64,000 nt of DNA from Mycobacterium pseudokansasii. GTDB taxonomy: Bacteria; Actinomycetota; Actinomycetes; Mycobacteriales; Mycobacteriaceae. The notes beneath the pieces are model-generated. The model searched no databases, was not told the origin of the DNA, and saw nothing but the letters and a program-made list of their open reading frames with translations. The first letter of the stretch is position 1, and the number at the start of each line of letters is the position of its first letter. The stretch is from positions 5,952,325-6,016,324 of the forward strand of contig NZ_UPHU01000001.1 of assembly GCF_900566075.1 (NCBI RefSeq), written 5' to 3'. The position numbers and the translations under genes are program-made. This document shows, piece by piece, positions 2,621 through 23,436 of this stretch.

Positions 2621-3316
2621 GTGAACAACCCCTTCGCTTCCCCCGACCAGCCATTCGGTGTCCGTCCCGGGTTCGGCTTCGGTCCCGGCCCCGCACAGCG
2701 GCGCGCCCTGCACAGCGCCCGGCGGCATGCCCGCCGCGAATTCTTCGAACACCTCCGCGACCATGCCGGCGACGACGTGCCATTCGGCTTCGGCCCCGGT
2801 GTCGGCCCCGGCTTCGGTTTCGGGTTCGGCTTCGGTCCCGGCGGCCCACGCGGCGGATGGCGTCGCGGCGGACCCGGCCGCGGTCGGCGCGGTGACGTGC
2901 GGGCGGCCATCCTGGTGCTGCTGGGCGAGGGACCGATGCACGGCTACGAGATGATCCAGCAGATCGCCGAGCGCAGCAATGGTTTGTGGCGGCCCAGCCC
3001 CGGTTCGGTGTATCCGACGCTGCAACTGCTCGACGACGAAGGCCTGGTCACTGCCGGCGCGTCCGATGGCAGCAAGAAGTTGTTCGAGCTGACCGACGAG
3101 GGCCGGGCGGCGGCCGAGAAGATCGAAACCCCGCCGTGGGAGGAGATCGCCGAAGGCGTGGCGCCGGGCCATATCAACTTGCGCAAGGCCATGGGCCAAT
3201 TGTTCGGCGCGGTGATGCAATCGGCACACACCGCCAGCGCCGAACAGCAGCAGCGCATCGTCGACATCATCAACAACGCGCGCCGGGAGATCTACGGCGT
3301 TCTCGGGGAGGACTAG
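2621..3316 (+). CDS. PadR-family transcriptional regulator
   Basis: The protein has 231 residues and starts at GTG behind an AAGGA-type ribosome site. Residues 1-85 are unusual: a basic Arg-rich helix is flanked by low-complexity Phe-Gly-Pro repeats (FGFGPG near 13-25, and again near 55-78). Residues 90-165 are a clear PadR winged helix, with RGDVRAAILVLL, the GYEMIQQI helix, the SPGSVYPTLQLLDDEGLV recognition region and the KLFELTDEG wing. The C-terminal 60 residues form the helical dimerisation arm. PadR proteins usually repress an adjacent membrane protein or exporter gene, so candidates are the divergent membrane protein or the NRPS-exporter operon downstream. Confidence 0.85.
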   Translation: MNNPFASPDQPFGVRPGFGFGPGPAQRRALHSARRHARREFFEHLRDHAGDDVPFGFGPGVGPGFGFGFGFGPGGPRGGWRRGGPGRGRRGDVRAAILVLLGEGPMHGYEMIQQIAERSNGLWRPSPGSVYPTLQLLDDEGLVTAGASDGSKKLFELTDEGRAAAEKIETPPWEEIAEGVAPGHINLRKAMGQLFGAVMQSAHTASAEQQQRIVDIINNARREIYGVLGED

Positions 3317-3325
3317 GGACCCTTG

Positions 3326-3365
3326 GTAATTCCCAACCGCTCGATGAGTAATTCCCAACCGCTCG
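3326..3365. repeat. Direct repeat, two 18-bp copies
   Basis: GTAATTCCCAACCGCTCG occurs at 3326-3343 and 3348-3365, separated by 4 bp, just after the PadR stop. The repeat marks the start of the disturbed interval that leads into the IS982 relic. No function is evident. Confidence 0.7.
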
Positions 3366-3490
3366 CCCAGTGTGCACCGGCTGCGCCGAGTGTGCACTGG
3401 CGGCAACCCACGCCGGGCGCCGCCGCAGTGGTTGCACTCTCGGCGTGTCGACTTGTGAAGGATGTGGCTGGAGCGCACCGATGGACAGTT

Positions 3491-3766
3491 GTGAATACAG
3501 ACCTCGATGCCCTCGCGACCGAACTGTATGTGACGATCGATGACCACGTAGTGCAACCCGACCGGCGGCGCGTCGGGCGGCCGAAGCAATTGACCGACGC
3601 CGAGTTGGTGTGCCTGGCCGTGCCTCCGGCGCTGCTCGGCGCCCGTAGCGAACACCATGGCTGCGAATGCGTTATTGCCGACTCGGCACCTGTTTCCATA
3701 CCTGCCGAAACAGCCCGGTTACCACAAGCGGGTCAAGGCTGCGATACCTCTGATCTAAGTCCACGG
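3491..3766 (+). pseudogene. IS982-family transposase relic, frameshifted and truncated
   Basis: From GTG 3491 the frame reads VNTDLDALATELY and then VGRPKQLTDAELVCLAV, which resembles the N-terminus of actinobacterial IS982-family transposases. Homology then continues in a different frame from about 3681 (RHLFPYLPKQPGYHKR, AAIPLI), ending at a stop near 3765. The remaining two thirds of the gene, including the catalytic DDE region, are not recognisable. The element is therefore dead. It sits at the left border of the island and suggests past insertion activity there. Confidence 0.6.
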
Positions 3767-4080
3767 TGGAACGGCTGATACGCCGAAACGGCTGGCGGGG
3801 CCGCTACCTTGCCTATCTGCCCGCGCCCGCTCGGTTGCCGTCTTGCCCTTCCGATTCGGTCTGAGGCATCAGGACCTAAGCCACCGCGCGCGAGGGCAAA
3901 AAGTCTCTACCGGCGGCTCTGGTCGACAACGACAGTGGAGGTTGTCACGGTGCATGCATGCAGATGTGGGGACTAGGTCTCGTCGGTGCCTATCGGGAAA
4001 GCCTTCGGGTTGTGCGATAGGCCAGTTCGACCACAGGAACCTATCGAAAGCTGGCATGTCGGCTTATCAGGGAGTTCGTC
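3767..4080 (+). promoter_or_regulatory. Non-coding leader of the NRPS operon
   Basis: No credible gene is seen in these 314 bases. The interval runs from the transposase relic to the NRPS start and must contain the operon promoter unless transcription enters from the PadR gene. The only clear signal is the ribosome site AGGGAG at 4069-4074, six bases before the ATG at 4081. No convincing -10/-35 pair was picked by eye. Confidence 0.4.
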
Positions 4081-7000
4081 ATGCTCAACTACGGCGCGCA
4101 ACCCGACATGCTGGGATCGTTGACCGCCGGCCAGCGGTCGATTTGGGTTCTCCAACAACTCTGGCCCGAAGTCCCTTACGTCATCGCCGGTTTTCTCGCC
4201 ATCGATCACCATGTCGACGTCGAGAGGCTCACGGTTGCATGCGAAACAGCGGCAGCGCGGTTCGGCACACAATGCGCGTTGCTGTCCCTCGTGGACAGCG
4301 AACCGGTCTTCATGGTCGACCGCTCACTCCCGCAGAGTCTGCGCTCGCTGCGTTGCATCGATCTGCGTGCCGAATCTGACCCGGTCGCAGCTGCTCACAG
4401 CTGGATGAACAACAACTACCACCGGCCGATTGATCTGGTCAGTGAGCAATTGACCGACTTGGCGCTGTTGCGGATCACCGACAATCTGTCGTACTTCTAC
4501 TTGCGTGCGCACCACGTTCTCTTCGACGGGTATGGCGCCAACAATTTCATCCAGCACATCGCGGCCGCCTACTCAGGATCGGTCGCGGATATCACCGAAG
4601 TCGACTTCTCCGAGTTTGCCTTGATCCGTGACGCAGATCAGAAGTATCAGCAGTCCGCGCGCAGTCATGCTGATGCCGAATATTGGCAGACCATCGTGCG
4701 CGGGTCCGCGGACGTCACCGACCTGGGCGGGGGATGGGGGTCAACGGCACCACGCCACCCGCAGATGCGCGAGCTGGTGTGCCGGCATCTGTCGGAGAAC
4801 CACCAGCTCGATGTCGCAAGGGTTATCGCGACAATGGCGGTGTTCATCGCCAAAACCACAGCACGCCAGAACGTCTCGATGTCGCTGCCAGTCTCGGCGC
4901 GCACGACTGCGGCGCTGAAAAGATCCGCGGGCATGGTTGCCAATATGGTGCCGCTGCGCATCTGCGTCGATGGCGGCGACACCATTGGCGCGCTGACCGA
5001 TCAGGTCGCCAAGGCCTTGGTCGGTGCGCTGCGGCATCAGCAGTTCCGGCGCTGGCCGGATCTCATTGCCGACGCAACCCATCTCGACAACCTTGATTTC
5101 GGCCCGATCATCAACATCCTCGATTTCGCCACCCCGTTTCGTTTCGGGTCTTCGGAACCGATGTACAACGTCTTGACCAACGGCCCCATACAAGACATCG
5201 CAGTCAACATCTATCCGCGGCTGGGTCACGGGGCGCCGCGAATTCAGATCGCGTGGAATCCGGATCGCTACCGCGAAGATGACATCGCCAGGCACATAAC
5301 CCGTCTGGAATGGCTCTTTGACCGTCTGCTGGTGGCGGATGGGTCGGTGGTGGTGGGTGAGGTGTCGTTGCTGGATGGTGGTGAGCGTGATCTGGTGGTG
5401 TGGGGGTGGTCTGGTGCCGGGGTGGGGGCGCCGGTGGGGGTGGCCTCGGAGTTGTTGGCTGCGGCGGTGGCGGCCGATCCGGATGCGGTGGCGGTCATCG
5501 ACGGTGCGCGGGAGGTGTCGTATCGCGAGCTTGATGAGTGGTCGACGCGGTTGGCGCGGGTGCTGATCGAGGCGGGCGTGGGTCCGCAGCGCGCGGTCGG
5601 TGTGGCGATGGATCGGTGTGCGCAGTTGGTGGTGGCGTGGTGGGCGGTGGTCAAGGCCGGCGGGGTGTATGTGCCTCTGGATCGGGCTCATCCGGTCGGG
5701 CGCATCGCCACGGTGCTCGACGCGGTGGACGCGGTGTGTGTGGTGAGCTGCGGTGCCGACAGTGTGGCCGGGGCCGGGGCGCGCCCGGTGATCCGCATCG
5801 ACGGTTTAGACGTGTCGGATCGGTGCGCAGAGCCGATCACCGATGTTGACCGGCTGGCGCCGCTGGGGGTGGATAACACCGCGTATGTGATTTTTACGTC
5901 GGGTTCCACCGGCACCCCCAAGGGGGTGGCGGTCGGCCACGCCGGTCTGCTGGGGGTGGCCGCGGCCCAACGAAAGCTGTTCGGGTTGGGCGCAGATGCG
6001 CGGATCTTGATGGTGGCCGCGCCGACGTTTGATCTGTCGATCTTCGAATGGTTGTGGGCGGCGGGGTCGGCGGCGGCAGTCGTGGTGGCACCACCGGGGG
6101 TATATGCCGGTGAAGCGCTGACCGCGTTGCTGCACGACCAGCAGGTCAGCGCTGCCATCGTGACCCCCACGGTGCTGGCGTCGCTGGATCGGGCCCGGCT
6201 GGACGGGTTGTCCACGCTGGTGGCCGGCGCGGAGGCTTGCCCACCGGAGTTGGTGGCCGCCTGGGCACCGGGCCGGCGGATGTTCAACGCTTATGGCCCC
6301 ACCGAAGCCACCATCTGGGCCACCTGCACCACGGCGCTGTCGGCCGGGCAGCCCATCACCATCGGCGCCCCGATCCCGGGGGTGTGTGCGCTGGTGCTCG
6401 ACGCCCGGCTGCACCCGGCCCCCATCGGGGTGGTCGGTGAGCTGTATCTGGCCGGGCCCGCGCTGGCACACAGCTATGTGGGCCGGGCGGAGTTGAGCGC
6501 CGAACGATTCGTGGCCAATCCCTACGGTGCGCCCGGAACACGGATGTATCGCACCGGGGATCTGGTGCGCTGGACGCCCGACGGAACATTGCAGTGCCTG
6601 GGCCGCGCCGACACTCAGGTCAAACTGCGCGGACAACGCATCGAACTCGGCGAAATCGAAAACGCCCTGCTGGCCTGCCCGCAGGTCACCCAGGCCGCCG
6701 CCACCATGCACCACACCAACACCGGAGCCCCCCAACTCGTCGGCTACATCAGCGCCTCGGCGCCCCTTGACCCCGCCGCGATACGTCAGCAGTTGAGCAA
6801 GCGGTTGCCCGCTTACCTGGTGCCGGCTCAGGTGGCGGTGCTCGATGAGTTCCCGCTGACCTCCTCGGGCAAGCTCGACCGAAACGCGTTGCCGGAACCG
6901 GTGTTTGCCGCCGCGGTATACCGGCCGCCGCAGACGGTGACCGAAAAAATCGTCGCCGACGTCTTCGCCGACGTACTGGGCGTAGCCCGGGTCGGTCTCG

Positions 7001-10000
7001 ACGACGACTTCTTCGCCCTGGGCGGAGATTCATTGCTAGCCACCCGGGTAAGCGCGCGACTGCAGCTCGCGCTAGACACCGAGGTGCCGGTGCGGTCCCT
7101 GTTCGACGCCTCCACCGTCGCCGAACTCGCCAACCATCTGCACCGCCAGCGCGGCGGCCGCACCCGGCCGCCGGTGACACCGATGCCGCGCCCGGAGCCG
7201 ATCCCGTTGTCATATGCCCAGCAGCGGTTGTGGTTTCTCAACCAATTCGAAGGCGGCGCAGCGACCTACAATATGCCCGCCGCGTTTCGGATCCGCGGGG
7301 CGCTGGATGTCGAGGCGCTGGCGGCGGCCATCGATGATGTCATCGCCCGCCACGAATCGCTGCGCACCGTATTTCCCGACATCGACGGTGTGCCGTTCCA
7401 GGAGGTATTGCCGGCCCGGGCGGGGGTGTGGCGGCGCGGAGGCGCAACGGTGGTGTCGTTGCCAGAACAAGATGTGGCCGGCGAGTTGGTGACGCTGGCG
7501 GGGTATCGGTTCGATTTGTCGGCGGAGATCCCGATTCGTGCGCAAATCTATTCGGTGGGGCCCGAGCAGCATGTGGTGGGGATTGTGGTGCACCACATTG
7601 CCTGTGATGGATGGTCACTGGCTCCGATGGTCCGTGATATGGGCCAGGCATATCGGGCGCGGCGACTGGGCCGCGCCCCGCAGTGGGCGCCGTTGGCCGT
7701 GCAGTACGTGGATTACACGTTGTGGCAACGGGAGTGGTTGGGGGCCGAGACCGATCCGGACAGTGTGATCGCCGGGCAGTTGGCCTACTGGCGGCAGGAG
7801 TTGACCGATCTGCCGGAAGTCGTATCACTCCCGGCGGATCGGGCCCGCCCGCCGGTGCCCAGTTACCGCGGTGATGCGGTGGAGGTGCGCATCGACCCGC
7901 AGGTGTGGGCGGGGGTCAAGGCGCTGGCGGCGGCGCACAACGCGACCCCCTCGATGGTGTTGCAAGCGGTCTTGGCGGTGTTGCTGCACCGGGCCGGTGC
8001 GGGTGAAGACATTGTGATGGGCGCGCCGATCGCCGGGCGGTTGGATGAGGCGCTCGATGATCTGGTCGGGTTCTTCGTCAATACGTGGGTGACGCGGGTG
8101 CGTGTCAATTCTGCGCACCGGTTCAGCGATGTGCTCCAGCAGGTGCGCCAGAAGGCGCTGGATGCCTACAGCAACCAGGACGTTCCGTTCGAGCTGCTGG
8201 TCGAGCAGCTCAACCCGGTGCGCTCAGCGGCGCATCATCCGCTGTTTCAGGTGGCCATGGCCTTCCAGAACAATGTGCGCCCCGAGGCGGTGGCGATCGA
8301 CGGGGTCAGCGTCGAGCAGCTGGGTGTGTTCACCCGCACCGCCAAGTTCGACCTGGATTTCGACCTGGGTGAGGTGCCCACCGAGGACCCGGCCGCGCCG
8401 ACGGCCGCCGGGACAGTGTCGTATGCCACGGATTTGTTTGACCGAACCACCATGGAGCGGTTGGTCACCCGCTTCGTGCGGGTGCTCGAGGCGGTGGTGG
8501 CGGATGGGTCGGTGGTGGTGGGTGAGGTGTCGTTGCTGGATGGTGGTGAGCGTGATCTGGTGGTGTGGGGGTGGTCTGGTGCCGGGGTGGGGGCGCCGGT
8601 GGGGGTGGCCTCGGAGTTGTTGGCTGCGGCGGTGGCGGCCGATCCGGATGCGGTGGCGGTCATCGACGGTGCGCGGGAGGTGTCGTATCGCGAGCTTGAT
8701 GAGTGGTCGACGCGGTTGGCGCGGGTGCTGATCGAGGCGGGCGTGGGTCCGCAGCGCGCGGTCGGTGTGGCGATGGATCGGTGTGCGCAGTTGGTGGTGG
8801 CGTGGTGGGCGGTGGTCAAGGCCGGCGGGGTGTATGTGCCTCTGGATCGGGCTCATCCGGTCGGGCGCATCGCCACGGTGCTCGACGCGGTGGACGCGGT
8901 GTGTGTGGTGAGCTGCGGTGCCGACAGTGTGGCCGGGGCCGGGGCGCGCCCGGTGATCCGCATCGACGGTTTAGACGTGTCGGATCGGTGCGCAGAGCCG
9001 ATCACCGATGTTGACCGGCTGGCGCCGCTGGGGGTGGATAACACCGCGTATGTGATTTTTACGTCGGGTTCCACCGGCACCCCCAAGGGGGTGGCGGTCG
9101 GCCACGCCGGTCTGCTGGGGGTGGCCGCGGCCCAACGAAAGCTGTTCGGGTTGGGCGCAGATGCGCGGATCTTGATGGTGGCCGCGCCGACGTTTGATCT
9201 GTCGATCTTCGAATGGTTGTGGGCGGCGGGGTCGGCGGCGGCAGTCGTGGTGGCACCACCGGGGGTATATGCCGGTGAAGCGCTGACCGCGTTGCTGCAC
9301 GACCAGCAGGTCAGCGCTGCCATCGTGACCCCCACGGTGCTGGCGTCGCTGGATCGGGCCCGGCTGGACGGGTTGTCCACGCTGGTGGCCGGCGCGGAGG
9401 CTTGCCCACCGGAGTTGGTGGCCGCCTGGGCACCGGGCCGGCGGATGTTCAACGCTTATGGCCCCACCGAAGCCACCATCTGGGCCACCTGCACCACGGC
9501 GCTGTCGGCCGGGCAGCCCATCACCATCGGCGCCCCGATCCCGGGGGTGTGTGCGCTGGTGCTCGACGCCCGGCTGCACCCGGCCCCCATCGGGGTGGTC
9601 GGTGAGCTGTATCTGGCCGGGCCCGCGCTGGCACACAGCTATGTGGGCCGGGCGGAGTTGAGCGCCGAACGATTCGTGGCCAATCCCTACGGTGCGCCCG
9701 GAACACGGATGTATCGCACCGGGGATCTGGTGCGCTGGACGCCCGACGGAACATTGCAGTGCCTGGGCCGCGCCGACACTCAGGTCAAACTGCGCGGACA
9801 ACGCATCGAACTCGGCGAAATCGAAAACGCCCTGCTGGCCTGCCCGCAGGTCACCCAGGCCGCCGCCACCATGCACCACACCAACACCGGAGCCCCCCAA
9901 CTCGTCGGCTACATCACCCTCGAGCACAACACCACCGCTGACTCCATCGCTGAGCAAGATGCCAAAATCGTCGAACAGTGGCAATACGTATATGACGAGC

Positions 10001-13000
10001 TGTACGGCCCTGAGGTCGGGGTCTCGGAGTTCGGCATGGATTTTCGGGGCTGGAACAGCAGCTACATCGATGATCCGATTCCGCTTGAGGAGATGGTGGA
10101 GTGGCGTTCGGCCATAGTGGATCGGATCATGGCCCTGCAGCCGCGGCGAGTGTTGGAGATCGGCGCGGGCTCGGGGCTGGTGTTGTCCCAGATCGCCCCG
10201 CAGTGTGAGCACTATGTGGCCACCGATATGTCGGCGGTGGCGATCGACAACCTCGCCCGCGCGCTGGAGCAGTTGCAGGTCCCGTGGCGTGACCGGGTCC
10301 AGCTGCTGACCCAGCCCGCCCACGTCACCGAGTCACTGCCGCAGGGCTACTTCGACACCATCATTCTCAACTCGGTCATCCAGTACTTTCCCAACGCGGG
10401 ATATCTGGCCAGCCTCATCGACAAGGCTGTGGATCTGTTGGCTCCCGGCGGGGCGGTGTTCATCGGCGACGTCCGTAACCACACCCTGCACGGTGCGTTC
10501 CAAACCGGCGTCGCGCTGGCCCGCACCACCGACACCGGTGCCGCCGAGATCCGCCAGCGAGTCCACCGCGCCTTGCTCAGCCAACCCGAATTACTACTGG
10601 CCCCAGGGTTTTTCACCACCTGGGCCGCGGGCCGTCCGGCGGTGGCCGGACTCGACATCCAAGTCAAACGCGGATGGGCCGACAACGAACTGACCCGGTA
10701 CCGCTATGACGTCACCATCCACAAAACTCCAACACCGGTACGCTCCGTGGCCACCACGCTCACCTGGACCTGGACCCAATGCGCAGGCCTGCGCGGACTG
10801 CACACCCGATTGATATCCGAACGTCCCACCACCGTGCGCGTCACCGACATACCCCGCGCCGGACTGATCACCGATGTCCACATCGAACAGGCCCTCGCCG
10901 CCGGGCTGCCCCTGGCAGACGCGCTCACCCAAGACACCGCCGACACCGCCATCCCCGAAGACTTGCACCGCCTCGGCGAAACCACCGGATACCACGTCGC
11001 CGTCACCTGGGGCGACCAACCCGGCACCCTCGATGCCGTCTTCGTCACCGACCCCGGCCCACTGACCGACCTCTACCTGCCCCCCACCGGGCCCCACCAA
11101 CGCACCATTTACGCCAATGACCCCCGCACCAACACCAAAATCACCGCGGTGCGTCAGTGGTTGGGCGCGCGGTTGCCCGACTACATGGTGCCGGCGCAGA
11201 TGGTGGTGCTCGACGAGTTCCCGTTGACGTCCTCAGGCAAGATCGACCGAAAGGCGTTGCCGGCACCGGTGTTTGCCGCCGCACCTTCCCGGGCGCCGCG
11301 GACCCGGACCGAAAAAACCGTCGCTGACGTGTTCGCCGAGGTCTTGGGCCTGGACCGGGTCGGGCCCGATGACGACTTCTTCGCTATGGGCGGGGACAGC
11401 ATTGTGTCGATTCAGGTGGTGTCGGCGTGTCGGGCTCGGGGGGTGTGGTTCTCGGCCCGGGATGTGTTCGAGTGCCGGACGGCTGCTCGCTTGGCGGAGG
11501 TGGCCGAGACGGCGCCGGGTGGACAAGTGCTGGAGGAGTTGCCCGGCGCCGGTGTGGGTGAAGTGCCGCTGACCCCCATTGTGTGGGACCTGGTGAGCCG
11601 CGGTGGCGGCTTCGACCGGTTCGTTCAGTCGGTGATGGTGCAGTTGCCGGTTGGTGTGGATCGCGCGGGAATCGTGGAGACCGTCTCGGCGGTGATGGCG
11701 CGCCACGATATGTTGCGGGCCCGGTTGTGGCGGGATCCGTCGGAGGGTTGGCGGATGCAGACCCATGAGATGGGGTCGGTCGACGTGGATGCGCTGCTGC
11801 ACCGGATCCCGATTCCTGCCGATGCGCCTCCGCAGGAGTTAGCGTCGCTGGCCAGCGAGGCGTTGAACGCCGCGGTGGATTGGTTGGACCCGTCGGCAGG
11901 ATCGGTGCTTCGGATGGTCTGGCTGGATCCTGCTGGCGGGCGGGGTGTTTCGGCCCGGCCGGGCCGGCTGGTCATCGTCGCGCATCATCTGGTGGTTGAT
12001 GCTGTGTCGTGGCGCATCATCGTGTTTGACCTGATGCGGGCGTGGGAGCAGGTGGCCGCGGGACGGTGTGCTGTTCTGCCGCCGGCGGGCACATCGATGC
12101 GCCGGTGGGCTCATGGGCTTCAGGAGGCGGCCCGCCGGGGGCACTTCGACACTGAACTGGCGGGATGGGCCCGAATTGTCGACGGCCCCGACCCGTTGGC
12201 GGGGTCCCGTCCTTTCGATCCGGGTGTCGATGTGATGTCGACAGTGGATCGGGTGCAGCTGCGGTTACCTCGCGAGGTGTTCGAGCCGGTGCTGACCACA
12301 TTGCCGGCGCTGTTTCGAAGCGGTGCACATGACGGATTGCTGGCGGCATTGGCGGTAGCGGTGGCGATGCGGCGGTCGCGCCGCGGGGTCGGCGAATCCT
12401 CGGTACTGGTTCACCTTGAGGGCCACGGCCGCGAGGAGTCCGTAGTGGCCGGTGCAGATCTGTCACAGACGGTGGGATGGTTCACCACGGTGTTCCCCGC
12501 CCGGCTCGACGTGTCCGGTATCGATGTCGACGACGTGCTGCGCGGCGGGGCAGCCGCCGGTGCGCTGATCAAGGCGATCAAAGAGCAGCTGGCCGCCATC
12601 CCGCAGCACGGCATCGGCTACGGCGTTTTGCGGTACCTGACGCCAGCCGGGCACAGCGCCTCGTCGGACTTCGGGCATCCCCAGATCATGTTCAACTATC
12701 TCGGCCGAATCGCGGGCAGCGAGTTGTCGACCGGCTCCGGTGACGGCGCATGGTGGGTCACCCAGGACTTCACCGCACTGGCCAGCGCCCCCGACGCCGA
12801 CATGCCCGCACCGGCCACCATCCAGATCAACGCGATGGTGCTCGATGACGAATTCAGCGCCCAGATCGCTTACCCGACAACATTGCTCGCCCAAGACGAG
12901 GTCGAAGAACTCGTCGAACTGTGGCGGGCGGCGCTGGTCGGATTGGCCCAACACACCCAACTGCCGGGAGCCGGCGGCCACACCCCCTCAGATTTCCCGC

Positions 13001-16000
13001 TGGTTTCGGTCGTCCAAGACGACCTGACCACCTGGGAACCGCGTTACCCCCGCCTTGTCGACGTCTGGCCGTTGGCGCCGCTGCAAACGGGCCTGTTCTT
13101 CCACGCTCTGCTGGCAAAGTCCTCCGTCGACGTCTACACGGTGCAAACCGTCATCGACCTCGCCGGTCAGATCGATACCGCGCGGCTGCGCGCCGCCGCC
13201 CAAGGCATCATCGACCGCCACGACAACTTGCGCACAGCGTTCGTCACCAGCTCGCACGGCCCCGCGGTGCAGATCGTCCTCGCGGACGTCGAGGTGCCCT
13301 GGCACGAACTGGACCTCACCGACTCGGCCAACCCCGACGAGGACTTCACCCGATTCACCCAGTCCGACCGGCTGCAACGATTCGACCTGACGACCCCGCC
13401 GCTGCTGCGTTTCACCCTGGCAACCAAGGGACACAACCAGTTCGCGCTGGTCATCACCCACCACCACATCCTGCTCGACGGCTGGTCCTCGCCGCTGCTG
13501 CTGCAAGAATTCCTCACTCTCTATGCCGCCGGTGGCGACCATTCAGCGCTACCACCGTCCCGACCGTTCCGTGACTACCTCGAGTGGGTCGCCCTGATCG
13601 ACACCGAGCAATCAGCACGGGCATGGCGTCGCGCCCTGGCCGGGTTGGACGAACCCACCATGCTCGCCCCGATCGATCCGAACCGCCGAATCGCTTCTGC
13701 CCCAGCCAAACACGCCCTGGAATTCAACGACCAGCAGAGCACCCGCATTGCAGACTTCGCCGCCCGCACCAGGGTCACCCTTAACACCGTCATCCAACTG
13801 GCATGGGCGATCGTGCTGGGTAACCTGACCGGACGCGACGACGTCGTGTTCGGGACCACCGTCTCCGGACGGCCCGCCGAACTACCGGGCGTGGACACCA
13901 TGATCGGCCTGCTCATCAACACCGTGCCCACCCGGCTACGCATCATCCCCACCGAAACCGTCACCGCCGCACTGCACCGCCTGCAATCCGAACAAGCTAC
14001 CCTGATCGACCACCACCATCGCAGCCTGTCCGATATCCACCGCCTCGCCGGCCCCGGAGCCACGTTCGACACTGCCATCGCCTTCGAGTCCTACCCCGTC
14101 AACACCACCGCCCTTCGACAACTCTTCGAATCCATCGATGGACTGAACCTGGAAGGGTTCAAAGTGGCTGATGCGACGCACTATCCATTGAGTTTGGCGG
14201 TTAGTTTCGATGCCCGGTTGCGGGTTGAGTTCAGCTACCTCACCGAGGTTTTCGATGCCGCCACTGTCGAGCGGATCGCTGGCTTCTACCGGCGGGTGCT
14301 CGAGGCGGTGGTGGCGGATGGGTCGGTGGTGGTGGGTGAGGTGTCGTTGCTGGATGGTGGTGAGCGTGATCTGGTGGTGTGGGGGTGGTCTGGTGCCGGG
14401 GTGGGGGCGCCGGTGGGGGTGGCCTCGGAGTTGTTGGCTGCGGCGGTGGCGGCCGATCCGGATGCGGTGGCGGTCATCGACGGTGCGCGGGAGGTGTCGT
14501 ATCGCGAGCTTGATGAGTGGTCGACGCGGTTGGCGCGGGTGCTGATCGAGGCGGGCGTGGGTCCGCAGCGCGCGGTCGGTGTGGCGATGGATCGGTGTGC
14601 GCAGTTGGTGGTGGCGTGGTGGGCGGTGGTCAAGGCCGGCGGGGTGTATGTGCCTCTGGATCGGGCTCATCCGGTCGGGCGCATCGCCACGGTGCTCGAC
14701 GCGGTGGACGCGGTGTGTGTGGTGAGCTGCGGTGCCGACAGTGTGGCCGGGGCCGGGGCGCGCCCGGTGATCCGCATCGACGGTTTAGACGTGTCGGATC
14801 GGTGCGCAGAGCCGATCACCGATGTTGACCGGCTGGCGCCGCTGGGGGTGGATAACACCGCGTATGTGATTTTTACGTCGGGTTCCACCGGCACCCCCAA
14901 GGGGGTGGCGGTCGGCCACGCCGGTCTGCTGGGGGTGGCCGCGGCCCAACGAAAGCTGTTCGGGTTGGGCGCAGATGCGCGGATCTTGATGGTGGCCGCG
15001 CCGACGTTTGATCTGTCGATCTTCGAATGGTTGTGGGCGGCGGGGTCGGCGGCGGCAGTCGTGGTGGCACCACCGGGGGTATATGCCGGTGAAGCGCTGA
15101 CCGCGTTGCTGCACGACCAGCAGGTCAGCGCTGCCATCGTGACCCCCACGGTGCTGGCGTCGCTGGATCGGGCCCGGCTGGACGGGTTGTCCACGCTGGT
15201 GGCCGGCGCGGAGGCTTGCCCACCGGAGTTGGTGGCCGCCTGGGCACCGGGCCGGCGGATGTTCAACGCTTATGGCCCCACCGAAGCCACCATCTGGGCC
15301 ACCTGCACCACGGCGCTGTCGGCCGGGCAGCCCATCACCATCGGCGCCCCGATCCCGGGGGTGTGTGCGCTGGTGCTCGACGCCCGGCTGCACCCGGCCC
15401 CCATCGGGGTGGTCGGTGAGCTGTATCTGGCCGGGCCCGCGCTGGCACACAGCTATGTGGGCCGGGCGGAGTTGAGCGCCGAACGATTCGTGGCCAATCC
15501 CTACGGTGCGCCCGGAACACGGATGTATCGCACCGGGGATCTGGTGCGCTGGACGCCCGACGGAACATTGCAGTGCCTGGGCCGCGCCGACACTCAGGTC
15601 AAACTGCGCGGACAACGCATCGAACTCGGCGAAATCGAAAACGCCCTGCTGGCCTGCCCGCAGGTCACCCAGGCCGCCGCCACCATGCACCACACCAACA
15701 CCGGAGCCCCCCAACTCGTCGGCTACATCAGCGCCTCGGCGCCCCTTGACCCCGCCGCGATACGTCAGCAGTTGAGCAAGCGGTTGCCCGCTTACCTGGT
15801 GCCGGCTCAGGTGGCGGTGCTCGATGAGTTCCCGCTGACCTCCTCGGGCAAGCTCGACCGAAACGCGTTGCCGGAACCGGTGTTTGCCGCCGCGGTATAC
15901 CGGCCGCCGCAGACGGTGACCGAAAAAATCGTCGCCGACGTCTTCGCCGACGTACTGGGCGTAGCCCGGGTCGGTCTCGACGACGACTTCTTCGCCCTGG

Positions 16001-17091
16001 GCGGAGATTCATTGCTAGCCACCCGGGTAAGCGCGCGACTGCAGCTCGCGCTAGACACCGAGGTGCCGGTGCGGTCCCTGTTCGACGCCTCCACCGTCGC
16101 CGAACTCGCCAACCATCTGCACCGCTGTAGGAATGCTATTTCCGTGCAAGAAGTCGTTCCGATTCAGACTCTGAAGAAAGGTAACGGCGTTCCGCTCTTC
16201 TGTATTCATCCTGGAGGCGGGGTGAGTTGGCCATATCAGGCTCTTGGTCATTACTTGGACTGCCCGATCATTGGAATCCAACAAATCCTGCAGGGCGAAG
16301 AAGCTGAACCTCAATCAATTCGCGATATGGCGAAAAACTATGCCGACAGGATCCAAGGCGTTTATCCTACCGGACCCTACAATCTTCTCGGCTGGTCCTT
16401 TGGAGGTGTCATAGCCCATGAACTCGCCATCGAGCTTCAGCGACGCGGATGTGTAATCGCACGCCTTGTCCTCCTCGACGCTGATCCCAGTATCGAAAAC
16501 GCTCAGGATTTAGGCGATTGGAAGAAGCAGATAGAAGTCTTGCGGTTCTACGGTATAGGTATTCCAGAACAAGACGAACCGCTTACCTACGAGCAGATAG
16601 AAGAACTGCTTCGAGAACCGGGCGGCGTAGAATTTCCTCGGTACAAACAGCTTCTGGATTTGTTTATTCAAAACATCACCACTGGTATGGCGTTGTATCG
16701 AACTCACGAACCCGATGTTTTCGATGGTGACGTGATAATATTTTCTGCGGTGCGGGGAGAGTGCGATCGGAGTTCGTCTCTTCTACGAAGTTGGCGACCC
16801 TACGTTGCTGGCGACATTACCGTGTACCCGATCGACTGTACGCATCAAGAGATGCTGACTACCGAATCGCTCAATATGTACGGCCAACAACTCAAATGTT
16901 CATTAATCCGAGTTGAATTCACTGACGTTTCCGGGCTATTTTGCGCCCCGGGCCAGCTTGTGGCCAGAACGAAGCCCGATGTCAAATGTTCGCGTGCCGG
17001 TCACTCGATCACCATCGGGAGGAATGTCCACGAAAACCACCATCAACGGGTGAAGCGATCCTCTGGTGGACATCCGGGGCGCGCACTATGA
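4081..17091 (+). CDS. Trimodular non-ribosomal peptide synthetase with N-methyltransferase, epimerase and thioesterase
   Basis: The single polypeptide has 4,336 residues. Domain order with approximate residues: C1 10-415 (HHxxxDG at 144-150), A1 420-930, T1 (Ser984), C2 1040-1465 (His1171, LCL-type), A2 1475-1945 interrupted by an N-methyltransferase 1950-2350 (SAM loop EIGAGSG at 2026-2032), end of A2 with Lys2387, T2 (Ser2440), epimerisation 2485-2970 (His2635-His2636; EGHGRE and NYLGR motifs), C3 2990-3410 (DCL-like, His3128-His3129), A3 3413-3925, T3 (Ser3977), thioesterase 4020-4271 (Ser4106 in GWSFGG, Asp4133, His4255). All catalytic motifs look intact. A1, A2 and A3 carry the same pocket residues: D651, L652, F655, T697, V714, G716, A737, I745, W746, K931 (A1 numbering). 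The amino acid cannot be assigned from memory; T278/A322-type positions hint at a hydrophobic or aromatic residue. No MbtH-like gene is present in the window. Confidence 0.95.
5330..7146 (+). repeat. Adenylation-domain repeat, copy 1 (extended through T1)
   Basis: Bases 5330-6751 recur at 8495-9916 and 14309-15730. The match to copy 3 continues to 7146 (16125), giving 1,817 bp shared between modules 1 and 3. Identity is inferred from matching translations in several frames and from checks of the boundaries. The first differing bases are 5329 against 8494/14308, and 7147 against 16126. Confidence 0.9.
8495..9916 (+). repeat. Adenylation-domain repeat, copy 2
   Basis: This is the module 2 copy of 1,422 bp, offset exactly 3,165 bp from copy 1. 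It ends sharply at the junction to the N-methyltransferase insert: the bases after GGCTACATCA differ from copies 1 and 3. On the left it shares 17 further bases with copy 3 (from 8478 and 14292). Confidence 0.9.
14309..16125 (+). repeat. Adenylation-domain repeat, copy 3 (extended through T3)
   Basis: This is the module 3 copy, offset exactly 8,979 bp from copy 1. It covers A3 and T3 and stops abruptly at 16125. The sequence then changes to much lower GC for the thioesterase domain. Confidence 0.9.
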
Positions 17092-17855
17092 GCGGACAAT
17101 TACCATCGTCGGACGTCGCGGCGGCTGAGGCTACGTCAGGCTGTGGGACTCATGCGTTGCGACTGGAGGCGGTGAGCCGAACCTATGGCGCAGGACCGAC
17201 AGCGGTGGACGCGCTCAAGGATGTCAACCTCGAGATCTGGCCCGGTGAGTTCGTCGTAATACTTGGTCCGTCGGGTTCGGGTAAAACGACGCTGCTCAAT
17301 CTGGTGGGCGGTATCGAAGTGCCCACGTGTGGACGCATCCTGGTGTCCGGCAACGACATTGCCACGCTCAACGCAAGGAAGCGCACGGCGTATCGACGGG
17401 ACCAGGTCGGATTTGTGTTCCAGTTCTTCAACCTGGTAGCGACCCTGACCGCGCTGGAGAATGTCGAGATCATTGCCGAACTCGTCGGCGAGGACTGTGC
17501 TCAGCGCAGCCGCGAGGCGCTGGAGAAAGTCGACCTCGCTGATCTCGCCGACCGGTTTCCCGGTCAAATGTCCGGTGGCCAGCAGCAACGGGCGGCGATT
17601 GCCCGCGCCATCGTCAAACAGCCGCCGCTGTTGCTGTGTGACGAACCGACCGGCAGCCTGGACCTGACCACAGCCCGGCAGGTCCTGGCGATGCTGCGAG
17701 AATTGGCCCGGGAGGGCCGTCACACCGTCCTTTTGGTAACGCACAATTCCGCGATCGCCAAGATCGCCGATCGGGTGGTGTGGTTGCGCTCCGGAAGGAT
17801 CGCCCGTCAGGAGCGGGTCGCCGCCCTGGTGTCAGCGCAGGAGCTCGACTGGTGA
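17088..17855 (+). CDS. ABC transporter ATP-binding protein, MacB/LolD type
   Basis: The ATPase has 255 residues. Its ATG at 17088 overlaps the NRPS stop as ATGA, so translation is coupled. Walker A is GPSGSGKTT (residues 60-68), the Q-loop is Gln112, the signature is MSGGQ (161-165), Walker B is LLLCDE (181-186) and the switch histidine is His219. The family energises FtsX/MacB-like permeases that move lipids, lipoproteins or peptides outward. Together with the next gene it probably exports the NRPS product or protects against it. The longer open frame upstream lies inside the NRPS tail, so the ATGA start is preferred. Confidence 0.9.
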
Positions 17856-20182
17856 GCCGTATCCTGCTGCGCAAGGTGCGTCGGGATCTGTGGCGGCAGC
17901 GCTCGCAGTTCCTGGCCGCGGCGGTCGTGATGGGGATCGGTGTGGCGGTCTTTGTAGGGGCCACGGATGCCTATGCCAACTTGCAGCAGTCATTCGCCCG
18001 GGTTTATGCCACGCAACTGCTGCCGGATGTTGTGATCAGCGGGCCCGGTGTATTCGGGCTCGACGAAGCTGCCCGAAACCTTCCCGGTCATCCCAGTATC
18101 GGGCTTCGCCAGCAGGCCGACGTAAGTATCCGCATCAACGGCCGCACCCTGTTCGGCCGCGCGGTCGGCGTGCCTGTGGCGACTCAACCCACAGTGTCGA
18201 AGTTGGCGCTGCGATCCGGTGCTCTGCCGGCCCGTGGGTCGGTGCTAGTGGACGAGCACCTCGCCGCGCATTACGCCCTGCACCCGGGGAGCACCGTCGA
18301 ACTGCTCGGAACATCCGGTTGGCACCCCGTGTCCGTTTCGGGGTCTGCTGTGTCGACAGAATATTTGTGGCCGGCCCGCTCGCGCGCGGAAACCGTGACC
18401 ACACCGGAGTACTTCGGCGTGGTGTTCGTGCCGGCACCCGATATGGTGCAGTTCGCGGCTCGGCCGGCAGCTCAGCTGCTGGCGTATGCACACGATCGCG
18501 ACCAAGCACCGGCGTTGGTCACCGCTGCAACGGAATTGGCGCGTTCGCACGGACTGGTGGTCACGTCGCGCGACGAGTTGCCGTCCTACAGTTTCTTGCG
18601 CGACGGGATGGGATCGGTACGCAAGTTCGCAAGGCTGCTGCCGTGGGTGTTCCTCGTGGCAGCGGTGGTCGGGACGCAAGTGCTCTTGTCGCGACTAGTG
18701 GTGGCGCAACGAGCGGTGATCGGTACGCTGTCAGCCAACGGACTATCCGGTCGAAAGATACTTGGCCACTACCTAACTTATGGTGTGGCGGTCGGTCTGG
18801 TGGGGGCCACGGCAGGGATACTCGGCGGTTATGTTCTCGGTGGCTGGTACACCGCCCAATACACCCAGGCGCTGGGACTGCCGCAGCGGGCGACGTCGCT
18901 GTATCCCAGCAGTCTGATCATCGGAGCCGTGGCCAGCGCTGCAGCATCCGCACTAGCGGCGTGGGCCCCGGCGCGCGCCGCATCGCGGATGACCCCGGCG
19001 GAAGCGATGAGAATCTCGCCGCCCAGCGTACGCGGCCGCATAAGCATCGCGGAACGACTACTGCCGCCGCTGCGGCGTATGCCTACGCGCTGGCGAATGA
19101 CGGTGCGCGGCATCACCCGCAACCGTCGCCGCACCATCCTTACCGTGGCCGGCGTGGTGAGTTCGGTATGCCTGGTGATGGTATTCGCCGGGATGCGCGA
19201 CACCGTCAATGGCGTCATTGATCGACAGTACGGAGAGGTCGAACTTCAAGACGCTCAGGTCATCACCGCCGCGGGCGCTGCCGATGCCGTCGCGGGAACT
19301 TTACGAGCCGACCCCCAAGTCGCCACCGCAGAACCATTCACCCGGCTGGACGTCTCTGTGCAGGGCCGCAACAAGCCTTACGACACCCTGCTGATCGCCT
19401 TGCCGCGGGCAACCCAGATGCACCGCTTCACATCGGGCCGATCTAGCCGCAGCCTTCCCACCGACGGTGTGTTGCTGGGAAAGGGCTTGCGGGCGATCCT
19501 CGGCGTTGCGGTGGGTGACCCCATCTCAATAACGAACGCCCAGAATGGAATCCGTCTCGAGCAATCCGTCGCGGGCTTCGTCGATGAGCCGATGAGCCCG
19601 GTCGTATATGTCGCGTCCGAGCAAGTGCCTGCTCTCGCACCGTCGGGCGTATTGCTCAAGCTGGCCCCCGGCATCAACCAGAACGTGAAGGGCCAGGATG
19701 TGACGACGTTGCCTGGCGTGGTCGCCTACGTGCCCACCGACTCGATCTCCGCCACCGTCCGCACCTCTTTCTCGCTGTATAACGTGCTGGTTGCACTGAC
19801 CTTGTTATCTGCCGGTGTCATGGCCGCGGCGCTGCTCTATAACGCCATGTCGGCCAACGTCAGTGAACGTACTGGTGAGCTGAGTACATTGCAGGCTGCC
19901 GGAATGGGTGCCCGCCTACTGGGCCGGCTGGTGGCGGCGGAGAATATGACGCTGGCTGCCATCGGTCTGCCGGCCGGTCTGATCGTCGGGACGGGGCTCG
20001 CTGAATGGTTCCTGTCTACCTATGTGACGCAGGGGTATCGGTGGCACCTGATGATGCACACCACGACTCCGTTCCTAGTCACGGTGGGGGTTCTGAGCGC
20101 CGCACTTTTGACTATGATCCCGACGTTTCGCGTGATCAGGCGAATGGATGTGGCCAAGGTGGTGCGTGAGCGGACGCTGTGA
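17852..20182 (+). CDS. ABC transporter permease with duplicated FtsX-like domains
   Basis: The permease has 776 residues and starts at GTG 17852, overlapping the ATPase stop as GTGA. Membrane segments are visible at about 18-38, 262-282, 308-330, 353-373 and 429-446, with a further group in the last 130 residues. Large extracytoplasmic domains lie between residues 40-260 and 450-650. The two halves each have one helix, a large loop and a three-helix FtsX block, the arrangement of mycobacterial MacB-like permeases such as Rv0072-type proteins. It ends the NRPS operon. Substrate is not determined; the peptide product is the natural candidate. Confidence 0.88.
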   Translation: MSRILLRKVRRDLWRQRSQFLAAAVVMGIGVAVFVGATDAYANLQQSFARVYATQLLPDVVISGPGVFGLDEAARNLPGHPSIGLRQQADVSIRINGRTLFGRAVGVPVATQPTVSKLALRSGALPARGSVLVDEHLAAHYALHPGSTVELLGTSGWHPVSVSGSAVSTEYLWPARSRAETVTTPEYFGVVFVPAPDMVQFAARPAAQLLAYAHDRDQAPALVTAATELARSHGLVVTSRDELPSYSFLRDGMGSVRKFARLLPWVFLVAAVVGTQVLLSRLVVAQRAVIGTLSANGLSGRKILGHYLTYGVAVGLVGATAGILGGYVLGGWYTAQYTQALGLPQRATSLYPSSLIIGAVASAAASALAAWAPARAASRMTPAEAMRISPPSVRGRISIAERLLPPLRRMPTRWRMTVRGITRNRRRTILTVAGVVSSVCLVMVFAGMRDTVNGVIDRQYGEVELQDAQVITAAGAADAVAGTLRADPQVATAEPFTRLDVSVQGRNKPYDTLLIALPRATQMHRFTSGRSSRSLPTDGVLLGKGLRAILGVAVGDPISITNAQNGIRLEQSVAGFVDEPMSPVVYVASEQVPALAPSGVLLKLAPGINQNVKGQDVTTLPGVVAYVPTDSISATVRTSFSLYNVLVALTLLSAGVMAAALLYNAMSANVSERTGELSTLQAAGMGARLLGRLVAAENMTLAAIGLPAGLIVGTGLAEWFLSTYVTQGYRWHLMMHTTTPFLVTVGVLSAALLTMIPTFRVIRRMDVAKVVRERTL

Positions 20183-20454
20183 GCGCATGCTCGGCGATGC
20201 GCAACGGCGTCAGTAGGCGAATTCGTACCGGAGCTGGAGGCGTGGGGGTCGGCGTAGCATCGAAACGAATTTGTGTCGTCCGTCCGTAATTCCCCAGGGG
20301 TTCCGTCACGTAAAGGGCTCCAACCCGAGCCAGCCGAATCCAGATAGAAAAGGCTCCGTAAAACCGGGGGAACTTCCCGCGCCGCGCAGCACTGACGGCG
20401 CTCATCGAAAGTCCCCAGGTGTGCTCGCCGAAATTCCTCACCTGTGAGCAGCGG

Positions 20455-21312
20455 TCAGTGTAGTGGTTGGCGGGTGCCGGTGGTGGTGCGGCGTAGGGTT
20501 TCGGCGGCGGCCTGGTGGTCACGGAGGCGGTAGGACTCGCCGTCGAGGTTGATGACCACGGAGCGGTGCAGCAGGCGGTCGAGCATTGCGGCGGCCACGG
20601 TGGTGTCGCCGAGGATCTCCCCCCAGGCGCCCACGCCCCGGTTGGTGGTGATCACGATGCTGGTCTTCAAATACCGTTGGGACACAACCTGAAACAACGC
20701 CGAGGCGGCCTCGGCGGGCAGCGGCAGGTATCCCAGTTCATCGATCACCAACAATGTGGGGCCGGCGTAGAACCGCATCGTGGTGGCCCAGCGTCCCTCG
20801 ATGGCGGCACGGTGACACCGTGCGGCCAGATCGGCGGCAGTGGTGAAGTAGGTCCTGTAGCCGGCATGTGCTGCGGCCCTTGCCAATCCGACCGACAAGT
20901 GCGTCTTTCCTGTACCAGGGGGCCCGACCAGCAAAATGTTGGTCGCCGATTCCAGGTAGCGGCACGTCCCGAGTTCGTCGATGAGCTTGCGGTCGATCCC
21001 GGCGGCGGCATCGACGTCGAAGTCGACCAGTGTGGCCGGGGTGGGAAGGCAGGCGAACCGCAACCGGCCGGCCAGCCGCCGAGCGGTGGAAGCCTCGACT
21101 TCCACGGCCAGCAGACGCTCCAACGCCACGGTCAGCGACAGGCCCTCTGCGGTGGCCTGGTCGAGCACCGCTGGGAGGGCTTCGGCGGCCGCGGCGAGTT
21201 TGAGTTCGGCCAGGTGCGAGCGCAGCTGCTGATAGCGGCTCGCGGCTGCTGACGGTGACTCCTCGACGGTGGTCGTGGTGGTGGTCTTGGGGGTGCGGGG
21301 GGTGGGGGTCAT
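20455..21312 (-). CDS. istB: IS21-family helper ATPase IstB
   Basis: This AAA+ ATPase of 285 residues is related to DnaC and assists IstA in target selection. Walker A is GPPGTGKTH (about residues 128-136) and Walker B is LLVIDELGYLPL (about 185-196); the YESATNI-type lead-in and the TNRGVGAWGE sensor region are present. A Thr/Pro-rich N-terminus precedes the helical region. Its ATG at 21312 overlaps the istA stop as ATGA. Confidence 0.92.
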   Translation of the reverse strand: MTPTPRTPKTTTTTTVEESPSAAASRYQQLRSHLAELKLAAAAEALPAVLDQATAEGLSLTVALERLLAVEVEASTARRLAGRLRFACLPTPATLVDFDVDAAAGIDRKLIDELGTCRYLESATNILLVGPPGTGKTHLSVGLARAAAHAGYRTYFTTAADLAARCHRAAIEGRWATTMRFYAGPTLLVIDELGYLPLPAEAASALFQVVSQRYLKTSIVITTNRGVGAWGEILGDTTVAAAMLDRLLHRSVVINLDGESYRLRDHQAAAETLRRTTTGTRQPLH

Positions 21313-22670
21313 TGGATGGTCCTGTTCTGGGCGGCCCGCTCGTAAGCGGACAAGTCGATGACGGTGGAATCGGTTGACGGAGTTGACGTTTCAATGGCGG
21401 TGATGGATGGCTGCTTGAGTTGAAGCAGTTGCGCGGCAGCGGCTTTGGCCGCCGGGCCCGGTGGGATGCGTTCCTTGCGGCGGTGTGGGCGTCCGGTCGC
21501 TGCGGTGGCCATCGCGGCGGCGTCCAGGGCGATGACATGCCCGCTGTCGCGCACCATCACCCCGAGCCCGTCGGCGGCCATCCGGTGGCGCGCGATCACG
21601 ATCCCGCTCGTAGTGGCGATATCGCAGAACTCACCCCCGACCGGATGCGACACCACGACCTGGGCCGCCGCCAGTTCCGGCGGCACCGAATAGCGGTTGC
21701 CGCGGTAAGACACCATCGCTTGACGCGAGGCGGTGCGAGCCTCGGCGACGATCACCGGATACGGCGTCGCCGGCGCCGGTTGCAGTGGCTCTGTTTTGGC
21801 CACCACGGCGACTGAGGACCGGCCGTCGGCCGTGGCCCGCAGCCGGGTGTCACCACGGACCCGCGTGAAGCGATCCAGACTCACCTGGGCCGCCTCGACG
21901 GTCATATCGTCGGCCAGGGTGCGCCACCAGCGTTGCGCGGCGGTGTGGTTGACCTTCTCCACCACGCCCTTGCGGTTACCGCGCCGGGCCGGGCAGATCG
22001 CCACCGCCACGCCGTAGTGCTTGGCCACCCCGGCGAACGACGCGCTCACCCGACCTGAGCCGGGGTCGCACACCGTGGCCATCCGATCGAAGCGCCACAC
22101 CCGGGTCAGTCCACCCAGGCCACGGGTCACCCGGTCCAGGCCGGCGACCAGATGCGGCTGGTCCTCACTCGGCGCCAAATAGCCGCGCCACATCCCGGAA
22201 TGCGACAGTGAGCCGACCAACAGGTGCGCTGTCTTTCCCCACCCCCACGATGCCGGTGGGTCGGGCAATTCCAGCCAGTCCCATTGGGTTTCCTCACCCG
22301 GCGGGTGCGGGATCACCGCGTTCGGGCGCTGCGTGGCAGTCCGGCAGGCCTCACAAACCGGGCGCAGGTCCCGGGCACGGATGTTGCGGGTCAGGCTCTG
22401 ATAGGACAACCCGAACCCCAGGTCCTCGAGTTCGTCGAACAGGGTGCGGGCCCACAGGTGCGGGTCCTCGGTCAGCCTCGCGGTGACGTAGTCGACGAAC
22501 GGATCGAACGGGTCCGGGCCGGGGCGGGCGCGGACCCCGGGTGTGCCGCCACCGGCCAGATACTTGCGGACCGTCTTGCGGTCGAAGCCGGTGTGGCGGG
22601 CGATCGCCGAGATCGTCCAACCACGTTTGCGTAGGGCATGTACTTCCACATCGTCCTCCCATGTGAGCAT
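21309..22670 (-). CDS. istA: IS21-family transposase IstA
   Basis: From ATG 22670 (MLTWEDDVEVHALRKRG) the protein has 453 residues; a longer frame upstream to 22754 runs into the terminal repeat and is not preferred. The N-terminal helix-turn-helix reads TISAIARHTGFDRKTVRKYL. The DDE integrase core includes TQWDWLELPD, FDRMATVCDPGSG and the GVVEKVNH segment with the catalytic Glu. The C-terminal beta-barrel region contains YRGNRYSVPPEL. It appears functional and forms a two-gene unit with istB. Confidence 0.92.
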   Translation of the reverse strand: MLTWEDDVEVHALRKRGWTISAIARHTGFDRKTVRKYLAGGGTPGVRARPGPDPFDPFVDYVTARLTEDPHLWARTLFDELEDLGFGLSYQSLTRNIRARDLRPVCEACRTATQRPNAVIPHPPGEETQWDWLELPDPPASWGWGKTAHLLVGSLSHSGMWRGYLAPSEDQPHLVAGLDRVTRGLGGLTRVWRFDRMATVCDPGSGRVSASFAGVAKHYGVAVAICPARRGNRKGVVEKVNHTAAQRWWRTLADDMTVEAAQVSLDRFTRVRGDTRLRATADGRSSVAVVAKTEPLQPAPATPYPVIVAEARTASRQAMVSYRGNRYSVPPELAAAQVVVSHPVGGEFCDIATTSGIVIARHRMAADGLGVMVRDSGHVIALDAAAMATAATGRPHRRKERIPPGPAAKAAAAQLLQLKQPSITAIETSTPSTDSTVIDLSAYERAAQNRTIQ

Positions 22671-23031
22671 GAGAAAGCGGGCCTCCTTCGGTGGAGCAAC
22701 TGGCGTCAGACACCAGCAGCTTCGAGGGAGGCCCGCCCTTCTCGGCGGAGCCACACGGGTGGGGAATTTCGATGAGCGTCAGTGGGGAATTTCAGTGAGC
22801 GCGGTCAGCACGGTCAGCCCGATACGAGCGAACGACTCGTTCAGGCGGGGCATACCACACGAATCATCACTGACCACCGTCACCGGCTGATACCGACCGG
22901 GCAGCGGCTTGGTCTGGGACTTTTGACCCGTAGTGGCGGGGCAGAAATGCTCTTTGCTCCACTCCTTGATTCAGGCGATAGTTGACGGACACTACGAGCG
23001 ATCAGGCGAGACGGATCATGAGGGGATAAGC

Positions 23032-23436
23032 GTGTCAACAGCCAGCCGCTTGACAACCACCGGTGTGGCCGTGTTGGGGTTTACCGTTTTCGTCACGATC
23101 GCGGGACTCATCGCGAATTCGGCTGGTATGGGCGCTAACGCGGCGCTCGGACGTTGGGTTTCTACGGCCGCCGGGTCCACCCTTCCGCAACATCAGTCAG
23201 CGCCCAATCCGGGCTGCCCAGATCCTGACAGCCCCAACTGCCCGGGACTTCAGATGCCAGGCCCACACCCACCAGTGCCCGGGCATGACGGGACCAACAG
23301 GCCGGGCACGGGGCAGATAGACCCGGGACACATGGGTCCGATGGGTCCGATGGGTCCGATGGGTCCGATGGGTCCGATGGGTCCGATGGGTCCGATGGAA
23401 CCAGGACGGATGGGGCCTGGGCCATCGGGTTCGTGA
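23032..23436 (+). CDS. Small exported or membrane-anchored protein with Met-Gly-Pro repeats
   Basis: I chose GTG 23032 because GGGG lies just upstream and it places a hydrophobic helix (VAVLGFTVFVTIAGLIA, about residues 10-26) at the N-terminus; the product has 134 residues. After the helix come a Cys-Pro-Asp-Pro-Asp/Asn-Cys-Pro motif with two cysteines and then seven MGP triplets. The family is not recognised. It precedes the carbonic-anhydrase-like gene by 36 bp on the same strand and may form an operon with it. Confidence 0.55.
   Translation: MSTASRLTTTGVAVLGFTVFVTIAGLIANSAGMGANAALGRWVSTAAGSTLPQHQSAPNPGCPDPDSPNCPGLQMPGPHPPVPGHDGTNRPGTGQIDPGHMGPMGPMGPMGPMGPMGPMGPMEPGRMGPGPSGS
23332..23394 (+). 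repeat. In-frame tandem repeat, seven copies of a 9-mer
   Basis: Seven exact copies of ATGGGTCCG run from 23332 to 23394, followed by a degenerate ATGGAACCA. They encode (Met-Gly-Pro)7. Copy number is likely to vary between strains, because exact short repeats are prone to slippage. Confidence 0.95.

What the first reader, a model, noticed from the sequence alone, without database searches (positions are those of the whole stretch)
5330..16125. NRPS with three apparently identical adenylation segments
The sequence shows a 1,422-bp block at 5330-6751, 8495-9916 and 14309-15730 with no differences detected, extended to 1,817 bp between modules 1 and 3. Flanking condensation and carrier regions are clearly diverged. 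Recent duplication or ongoing gene conversion of the specificity-bearing part is the simplest explanation, so all three modules should select the same monomer. Mosaic swapping of A domains is a known NRPS evolution route, but threefold homogenisation inside one gene is striking. Such repeats are also a classic place for assembly error.
Basis: partly seen in the sequence, partly recalled or inferred. Interest (0 to 1): 0.85.

Follow-up and report, generated by a model that had tools for sequence, protein, structure and literature searches.

The report
Homogenised adenylation domains in mycobacterial synthetase
A large peptide-making enzyme gene in a Mycobacterium carries three letter-for-letter identical copies of its amino-acid-choosing part inside modules that otherwise differ, best explained by one copy having been copied over the others, a process already known for such enzymes and complete in this gene.

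Summary
The repeats are real: three 1,422-bp blocks without a difference, 1,817 bp between modules 1 and 3, in one 4,336-aa gene. Layout: C-A-T / C-A(methyltransferase)-T-E / C-A-T-TE. G227, a relative, has the same layout; M. gastri has it on two contigs. So the three modules are older than the identity, and recent module duplication is not supported. The A copies are young: 0 of 292 fourfold sites differ inside the gene, against about 0.14 per site between window and M. gastri in C1, E and C3, and 0.24 in the A blocks. A copies group by species, and contigs of M. ostraviense, M. gordonae and G047 break inside the same block edges. This is concerted evolution by gene conversion, already described for NRPSs (PMC4256081). 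All three pocket codes read DLFIVGAIW; the substrate is open. M. gastri has a changed pocket in A1. Eight of 25 other loci compared have an A pair of 95% or more; only the window has all identical. Closest characterised relative: MPS1 of M. paratuberculosis. The gene lies on a ~23.7-kb insertion absent from that site in four relatives. Reads were not available.

The parts
4081..17091 (+). NRPS gene, 4,336 aa, three modules and a thioesterase
4111..5370 (+). C1, N-terminal condensation domain (core HHVLFDG); probable acyl-starter C domain (inferred)
   Evidence: starter role not tested
5330..6751 (+). identical block, copy 1 (end of C1, linker and A1 through the specificity pocket)
   Evidence: code DLFIVGAIW
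6752..7146 (+). extension of the block shared exactly with module 3 (A1 C-terminal part and carrier T1)
7201..8550 (+). C2 condensation domain (core HHIACDG)
8495..9916 (+). identical block, copy 2 (A2 up to the methyltransferase insertion)
10006..11070 (+). methyltransferase domain inserted in A2, expected to N-methylate residue 2
   Evidence: activity not tested
11143..11499 (+). rest of A2 (A10 lysine) and carrier T2, diverged from T1/T3
11446..12870 (+). E, epimerisation domain (core [10 protein letters not shown])
13036..14415 (+). C3, condensation domain after E (core HHILLDG), DCL position
14309..15730 (+). identical block, copy 3
15731..16125 (+). extension shared exactly with module 1 (A3 C-terminal part and carrier T3)
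16171..16905 (+). TE, thioesterase (GWSFGG)
17088..17855 (+). ABC transporter ATPase, probable export partner (start codon assumed)
   Evidence: next to the NRPS in relatives
17780..20182 (+). FtsX-type permease, probable export partner
3315..27016 (.). about 23.7-kb insertion holding the NRPS cassette, an IS21-type transposase, a PPE gene and others; absent at this site in four relatives

Best explanation
The gene encodes a three-module mycobacterial peptide synthetase of the peptidolipid type. It would join three units of the same amino acid, N-methylate and epimerise the second, and release the product through a thioesterase, with an adjacent ABC pair for export. The modules are older than the identity of their A domains. 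The A domains were made identical afterwards by homologous recombination (gene conversion) between A blocks of the same gene. Homology runs out at the C domains, at the methyltransferase insertion and at the end of the carrier, and these limits set the block edges. Shown: identity, architecture, shared layout, species-wise clustering of copies. Inferred: the conversion mechanism, acyl start, export and product.
For: Exact blocks. Same 3-module layout in G227, 4,342 aa in a 5-contig assembly. G227 A1 vs A3 98.7%, with a 1,113-bp exact run, while G227 vs window A is 85.1-86.6%. M. gastri A1 vs A3 95.8%, A2 end vs A3 98.2% over 501 columns. Window vs M. gastri fourfold-site divergence about 0.14 in C1, E and C3 but 0.24 in A1 and A3, with a step at the 5' block edge; 0 of 292 inside the gene; chance of 0/292 at 0.14 per independent site about 10^-19. 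Tree: copies group by species. Contigs of M. ostraviense, M. gordonae and G047 end 77-160 bp inside the same block edges. 8 of 25 other loci with at least two A domains have an A pair of 95% or more.
Against: No reads, so exact identity could be helped by polishing. The A blocks are further from M. gastri than C1, E and C3 are, so replacement by an outside or older allele must be added; the raised divergence also continues into T3 and the unrepeated TE (0.33), so it is not confined to the block. G227 keeps a 14%-diverged A2, and 17 of 25 other loci show no such pair. No conspecific strain was available to see copies change together. The G227 clade has only 88/87 support.
Confidence: 0.85

Rival explanations
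1. Recent duplication of whole modules produced the three identical A domains.
For: The identical blocks are in successive modules of one gene.
Against: C1, C2, C3 and E are different domain types, each with its own counterpart in G227 and, over two contigs, in M. gastri; only the A blocks (with T1/T3) are identical.
Confidence: 0.04
2. Assembly or polishing artefact: real copies differ slightly and were written as one consensus, or modules were miscounted.
For: Draft assemblies of M. gordonae and M. ostraviense do go wrong here, joining C1-A-T (in M. ostraviense with part of A missing) directly to TE although the middle part is on another contig.
Against: Module count and order match G227. 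The window genome has 2 contigs. Copies 14% apart, as G227 A2 is, would hardly be merged by polishing (inference).
Confidence: 0.08
3. Selection for one substrate keeps the three A domains identical, with no special role for recombination.
For: All three codes are the same here and in G227.
Against: Silent sites are identical too (0 of 292). In G227 the code is the same in all three although A2 differs by 14% in DNA, so identity of DNA is not needed for identity of code.
Confidence: 0.03

Closest known systems
MPS1 of Mycobacterium avium subsp. paratuberculosis (P0164, so named by a source)
   Same: Three modules, methyltransferase inside A2, terminal thioesterase; A2 is 72.5% identical in protein to the window A; TE 53%. 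Its A1 and A3 are protein-identical over 252 residues, another case of A homogenisation.
   Different: E follows module 1 there and module 2 here; its A1 and A3 are only 46-47% like the window A; its three codes differ from the window code (DVWSVAAMC, DAGIVVGIW, DVWSVAAVY); its first C domain matches C1 weakly (38.9 bits).
Concerted evolution of NRPS/PKS domains (PMC4256081, passages seen; daptomycin, A54145, CDA, syringopeptin, mycolactone)
   Same: Domains cluster by gene cluster rather than by position, attributed to internal recombination.
   Different: Those trees were made from amino-acid sequences; here all three A domains are exact at DNA level and only A (with T1/T3) is affected, not C or E.
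Wollamide/desotamide A-domain exchange (PMC9205934, passages seen)
   Same: Intragenomic recombination between A-domain regions altered specificity, as the changed A1 pocket of M. gastri may have.
   Different: Diversifying there; homogenising in the window.

Membership tests
Nonribosomal peptide synthetase | C, A and carrier domains with core residues, release domain | tested here: met
   (HHxxxD cores, A10 lysine, GGDS, GWSFGG)
N-methylating interrupted A domain | methyltransferase inserted in the A domain of module 2 | tested here: met
   activity not tested
Mycobacterial peptidolipid synthetase (Mps1 type) | sequence kinship and module plan of MPS1 | tested here: inconclusive
   three modules, MT in module 2 and TE agree; position of E, first C and A1/A3 differ
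Mycobacterial peptidolipid synthetase (Mps1 type) | N-acylated peptide product | not testable with these tools
   needs mass spectrometry
Concerted evolution by gene conversion | copies within a gene closer to one another than to those of relatives | tested here: met
   in G227 clearly for A1/A3, weakly for A2
Concerted evolution by gene conversion | copies vary together among strains of one species | not tested
   no conspecific genome in reach

The most novel reading that the evidence does not exclude
Mycobacterial peptide synthetases may run a two-speed system: whole A blocks are continually overwritten by sister copies, while short pocket segments are exchanged within that uniform background to change one residue of the product, as the M. 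gastri A1 pocket and the MPS1 A1/A3 pair suggest. The window shows the fully reset state.
Probability: 0.35. Interest if true: 0.62.

Novelty: new member of a known kind. Interest (0 to 1): 0.45.

Why it matters
It is a clean natural case in which the A block (with the carrier in two modules), and not C or E, has been exchanged between three modules of different C-domain type. The block edges mark junctions that have survived in nature, and relatives supply partly homogenised and pocket-changed states for comparison. It also warns that draft assemblies of such genes break or collapse at these blocks.

Tried and rejected
Recent module duplication was rejected because the layout is shared with G227 and, over two contigs, with M. 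gastri. A further genomic donor copy was sought and not found (40 of 226 candidates scored). A source for the M. gastri A1 pocket segment was sought among the other 39 of the 40 A domains held; the best was only 85%, M. gastri's own A3, so its source is unknown. The A block as a DNA probe over the genus matched 195 of 198 genomes and was too general to pick orthologues; C1 was used instead. The first protein search (methyltransferase region) ranked proteins with many such domains first and gave no orthologue list; the thioesterase search worked better. The species could not be named: the first 20 kb of the second contig gave no close plasmid record. Paper searches for NRPS A domains with gene conversion or concerted evolution, with and without mycobacteria, showed by title and abstract none on mycobacterial NRPS; one search listed 25 of 52 papers. 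Searches listed none that by title or abstract is about this gene.

Full report
Observation. The three blocks are identical over 1,422 bp, and modules 1 and 3 over 1,817 bp. They lie in one open frame of 4,336 aa. Pfam finds four condensation-type stretches, three AMP-binding, three carriers, one methyltransferase region and one thioesterase. Domain mapping gives C-A-T / C-A-MT-T-E / C-A-T-TE. Blocks start at the end of each C domain and cover the A domain through the pocket; in module 2 they stop at the methyltransferase insertion, while in modules 1 and 3 they run on through the carrier. No other full copy was found in the genome.

Where it is. Relatives of C1 at E <= 1e-60 occur in 42 of 396 genomes of the genus (at most 4 candidates scored per genome). 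Four relatives (M. gastri, M. ostraviense, M. gordonae, G227) match the window up to about 3314-3320 and again from about 27013-27019, with 85 to 280 bp between in their own sequence. So about 23.7 kb were inserted here, including the NRPS with its ABC pair, an IS21-type transposase and a PPE gene. Homology of the NRPS cassette to M. gastri, M. ostraviense and M. gordonae runs to about 20184-20200, and to M. gastri and M. ostraviense from 4081, so these species carry it elsewhere.

Age of the modules. G227, in a 5-contig assembly, has the same order of domains in 4,342 aa. M. gastri shows C1-A-T-C2-A (cut) on one contig and A (cut)-MT-T-E-C-A-T-TE on another. M. gordonae shows only pieces: MT-T-E-C, and C1-A-T-TE. 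C1, C2, E and C3 are 90.6-91.9% identical in DNA between window and M. gastri, with fourfold-site divergence 0.14-0.18; glpK and SpoIIM have 0.18 and 0.13, and the ABC pair 0.19. The three-module plan therefore predates the divergence of these cassette copies, which speaks against recent duplication.

Age of the A copies. Inside the window gene 0 of 292 fourfold sites differ. Between window and M. gastri 37 of 266 differ in E, 36 of 255 in C3, 29 of 204 in C1, and 61 of 253 in A3, 60 of 249 in A1; sliding windows show the rise at the 5' block edge. Against a simple reading, the divergence stays high beyond the block, 0.27-0.33 in carriers and 0.33 in the unrepeated TE. In G227 A1 and A3 are 98.7% identical but A2 is 85.6-86.3% like them. 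In M. gastri A1 vs A3 is 95.8% and A2 end vs A3 98.2%. The tree groups copies by species: window 3, G227 3 (88/87), M. gastri 2 (100/100). It puts M. gastri with M. gordonae (100/99) rather than with the window, whereas in E and C3 M. gastri is nearer to the window (0.14) than to M. gordonae (0.19). Exchange between species or homogenisation to different ancestral copies would both do this. For M. gordonae and G227, E and C3 diverge from the window by 0.19-0.24, less than glpK and SpoIIM (0.34-0.40), which hints at transfer of the cassette; but C1 and TE of G227 (0.37, 0.36) do not show this.

Draft assemblies as witnesses. An M. ostraviense contig spans window 9820-14420, an M. gordonae contig 9840-14407, a G047 contig 7063-14422, and another G047 contig ends at 5489. 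These ends lie 77 to 160 bp inside block edges, as expected if the assembler met exact repeats there. The two M. gastri contigs end further inside copy 2, at 8890 and 9415. A G091 contig also ends inside copy 1, at 5425, but G091 has no match to the E-C3 probe, so its layout is unknown and I do not count it. M. gordonae has C1-A-T-TE joined directly and M. ostraviense the same with part of A missing; I read both as collapse, since each has the middle part on another contig. A contig labelled Chloroflexi (L012) has an E domain 100% identical to M. gordonae and an A next to its MT identical over 1,302 columns to the M. gordonae A; it lacks about 84 bp at its A-MT junction and may be chimeric, so I do not count it as proof.

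How common. One search examined 28 loci: 27 of the 36 fetched, and the window; the 9 left out were broken contigs or genes cut by a contig end. The loci were chosen for a C1 relative or an A-block match, not at random. 26 had at least two full A domains. Nine of 26, window included, have a pair of 95% or more in the same locus; 8 of 25 without it. Only the window has all its A domains identical. The other 17 of 25 have no such pair.

Specificity. The nine pocket residues (positions by recalled GrsA numbering and motif anchors, not by a structure) read DLFIVGAIW in all three copies; G227 reads DLFIIGAIW three times although its A2 differs, M. gastri A3 DLFIIGAIW, and M. gastri A1 DAFVVEAIW. In M. 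gastri 31 of 46 codon substitutions between A1 and A3 fall in positions 180-268, which hold pocket positions 235 to 301 (counted by hand from its list; four further codons are an insertion in A1). The parts on either side are 98.7% and 98.3% identical. So one pocket differs inside an otherwise homogenised domain. The substrate itself is not predicted.

Comparison. MPS1 of M. paratuberculosis (P0164) has C-A-T-E-C-A-MT-T-C-A-T-TE. [quoted passage not shown] that P0164 is that enzyme is my inference from its module plan. Its A1 and A3 are identical in protein over 252 residues (94.8% overall) and differ at two of the nine pocket positions, so near-identical A domains need not share a substrate; in the window all nine agree. 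Concerted evolution of NRPS domains, including A domains of daptomycin-type clusters, is described in PMC4256081 (passages), and PMC9205934 mentions the homogenising effect of gene conversion (passages). The finding is thus a strong new case of a known process.

Limits. No reads, no second strain, no product. Conversion is inferred from pattern. The acyl start, export and the same-residue tripeptide are inferences from domain order.

Noticed in passing
window 3315-27016: About 23.7 kb absent from the same site in four relatives, where probes from the flanking SpoIIM/RDD and glpK genes lie 1.1-1.4 kb apart; it carries an IS21-type transposase at 21309-22754.
   Followed up: partly
window 23332-23398: Short tandem array of 9-bp units just upstream of a carbonic anhydrase/YHS gene.
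   Followed up: no
L102/L140 (M. gastri A1) vs L139 (A3): Specificity pocket of A1 differs while the rest of the domain is nearly identical; A1 also has four extra codons after position 360.
   Followed up: partly
P0164 (MPS1 of M. paratuberculosis), A1 and A3: A1 and A3 are protein-identical over 252 residues although their substrates differ, if the L3P assignment holds.
   Followed up: partly
L012 (JACPOQ010000073.1): A contig filed as a Chloroflexi MAG has an E domain 100% identical to M. gordonae; likely mislabelled.
   Followed up: partly
L113 (G091 contig C85): A different NRPS layout, A-T-C-A-T-TE, whose first A has the same code type DLFIIGAIW.
   Followed up: no
L096 (G143), L101 (G031), L085 (G340), L087 (G102), L083 (G277): Other mycobacterial NRPS loci with exact internal repeats of 1.5-2.7 kb.
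   Followed up: partly
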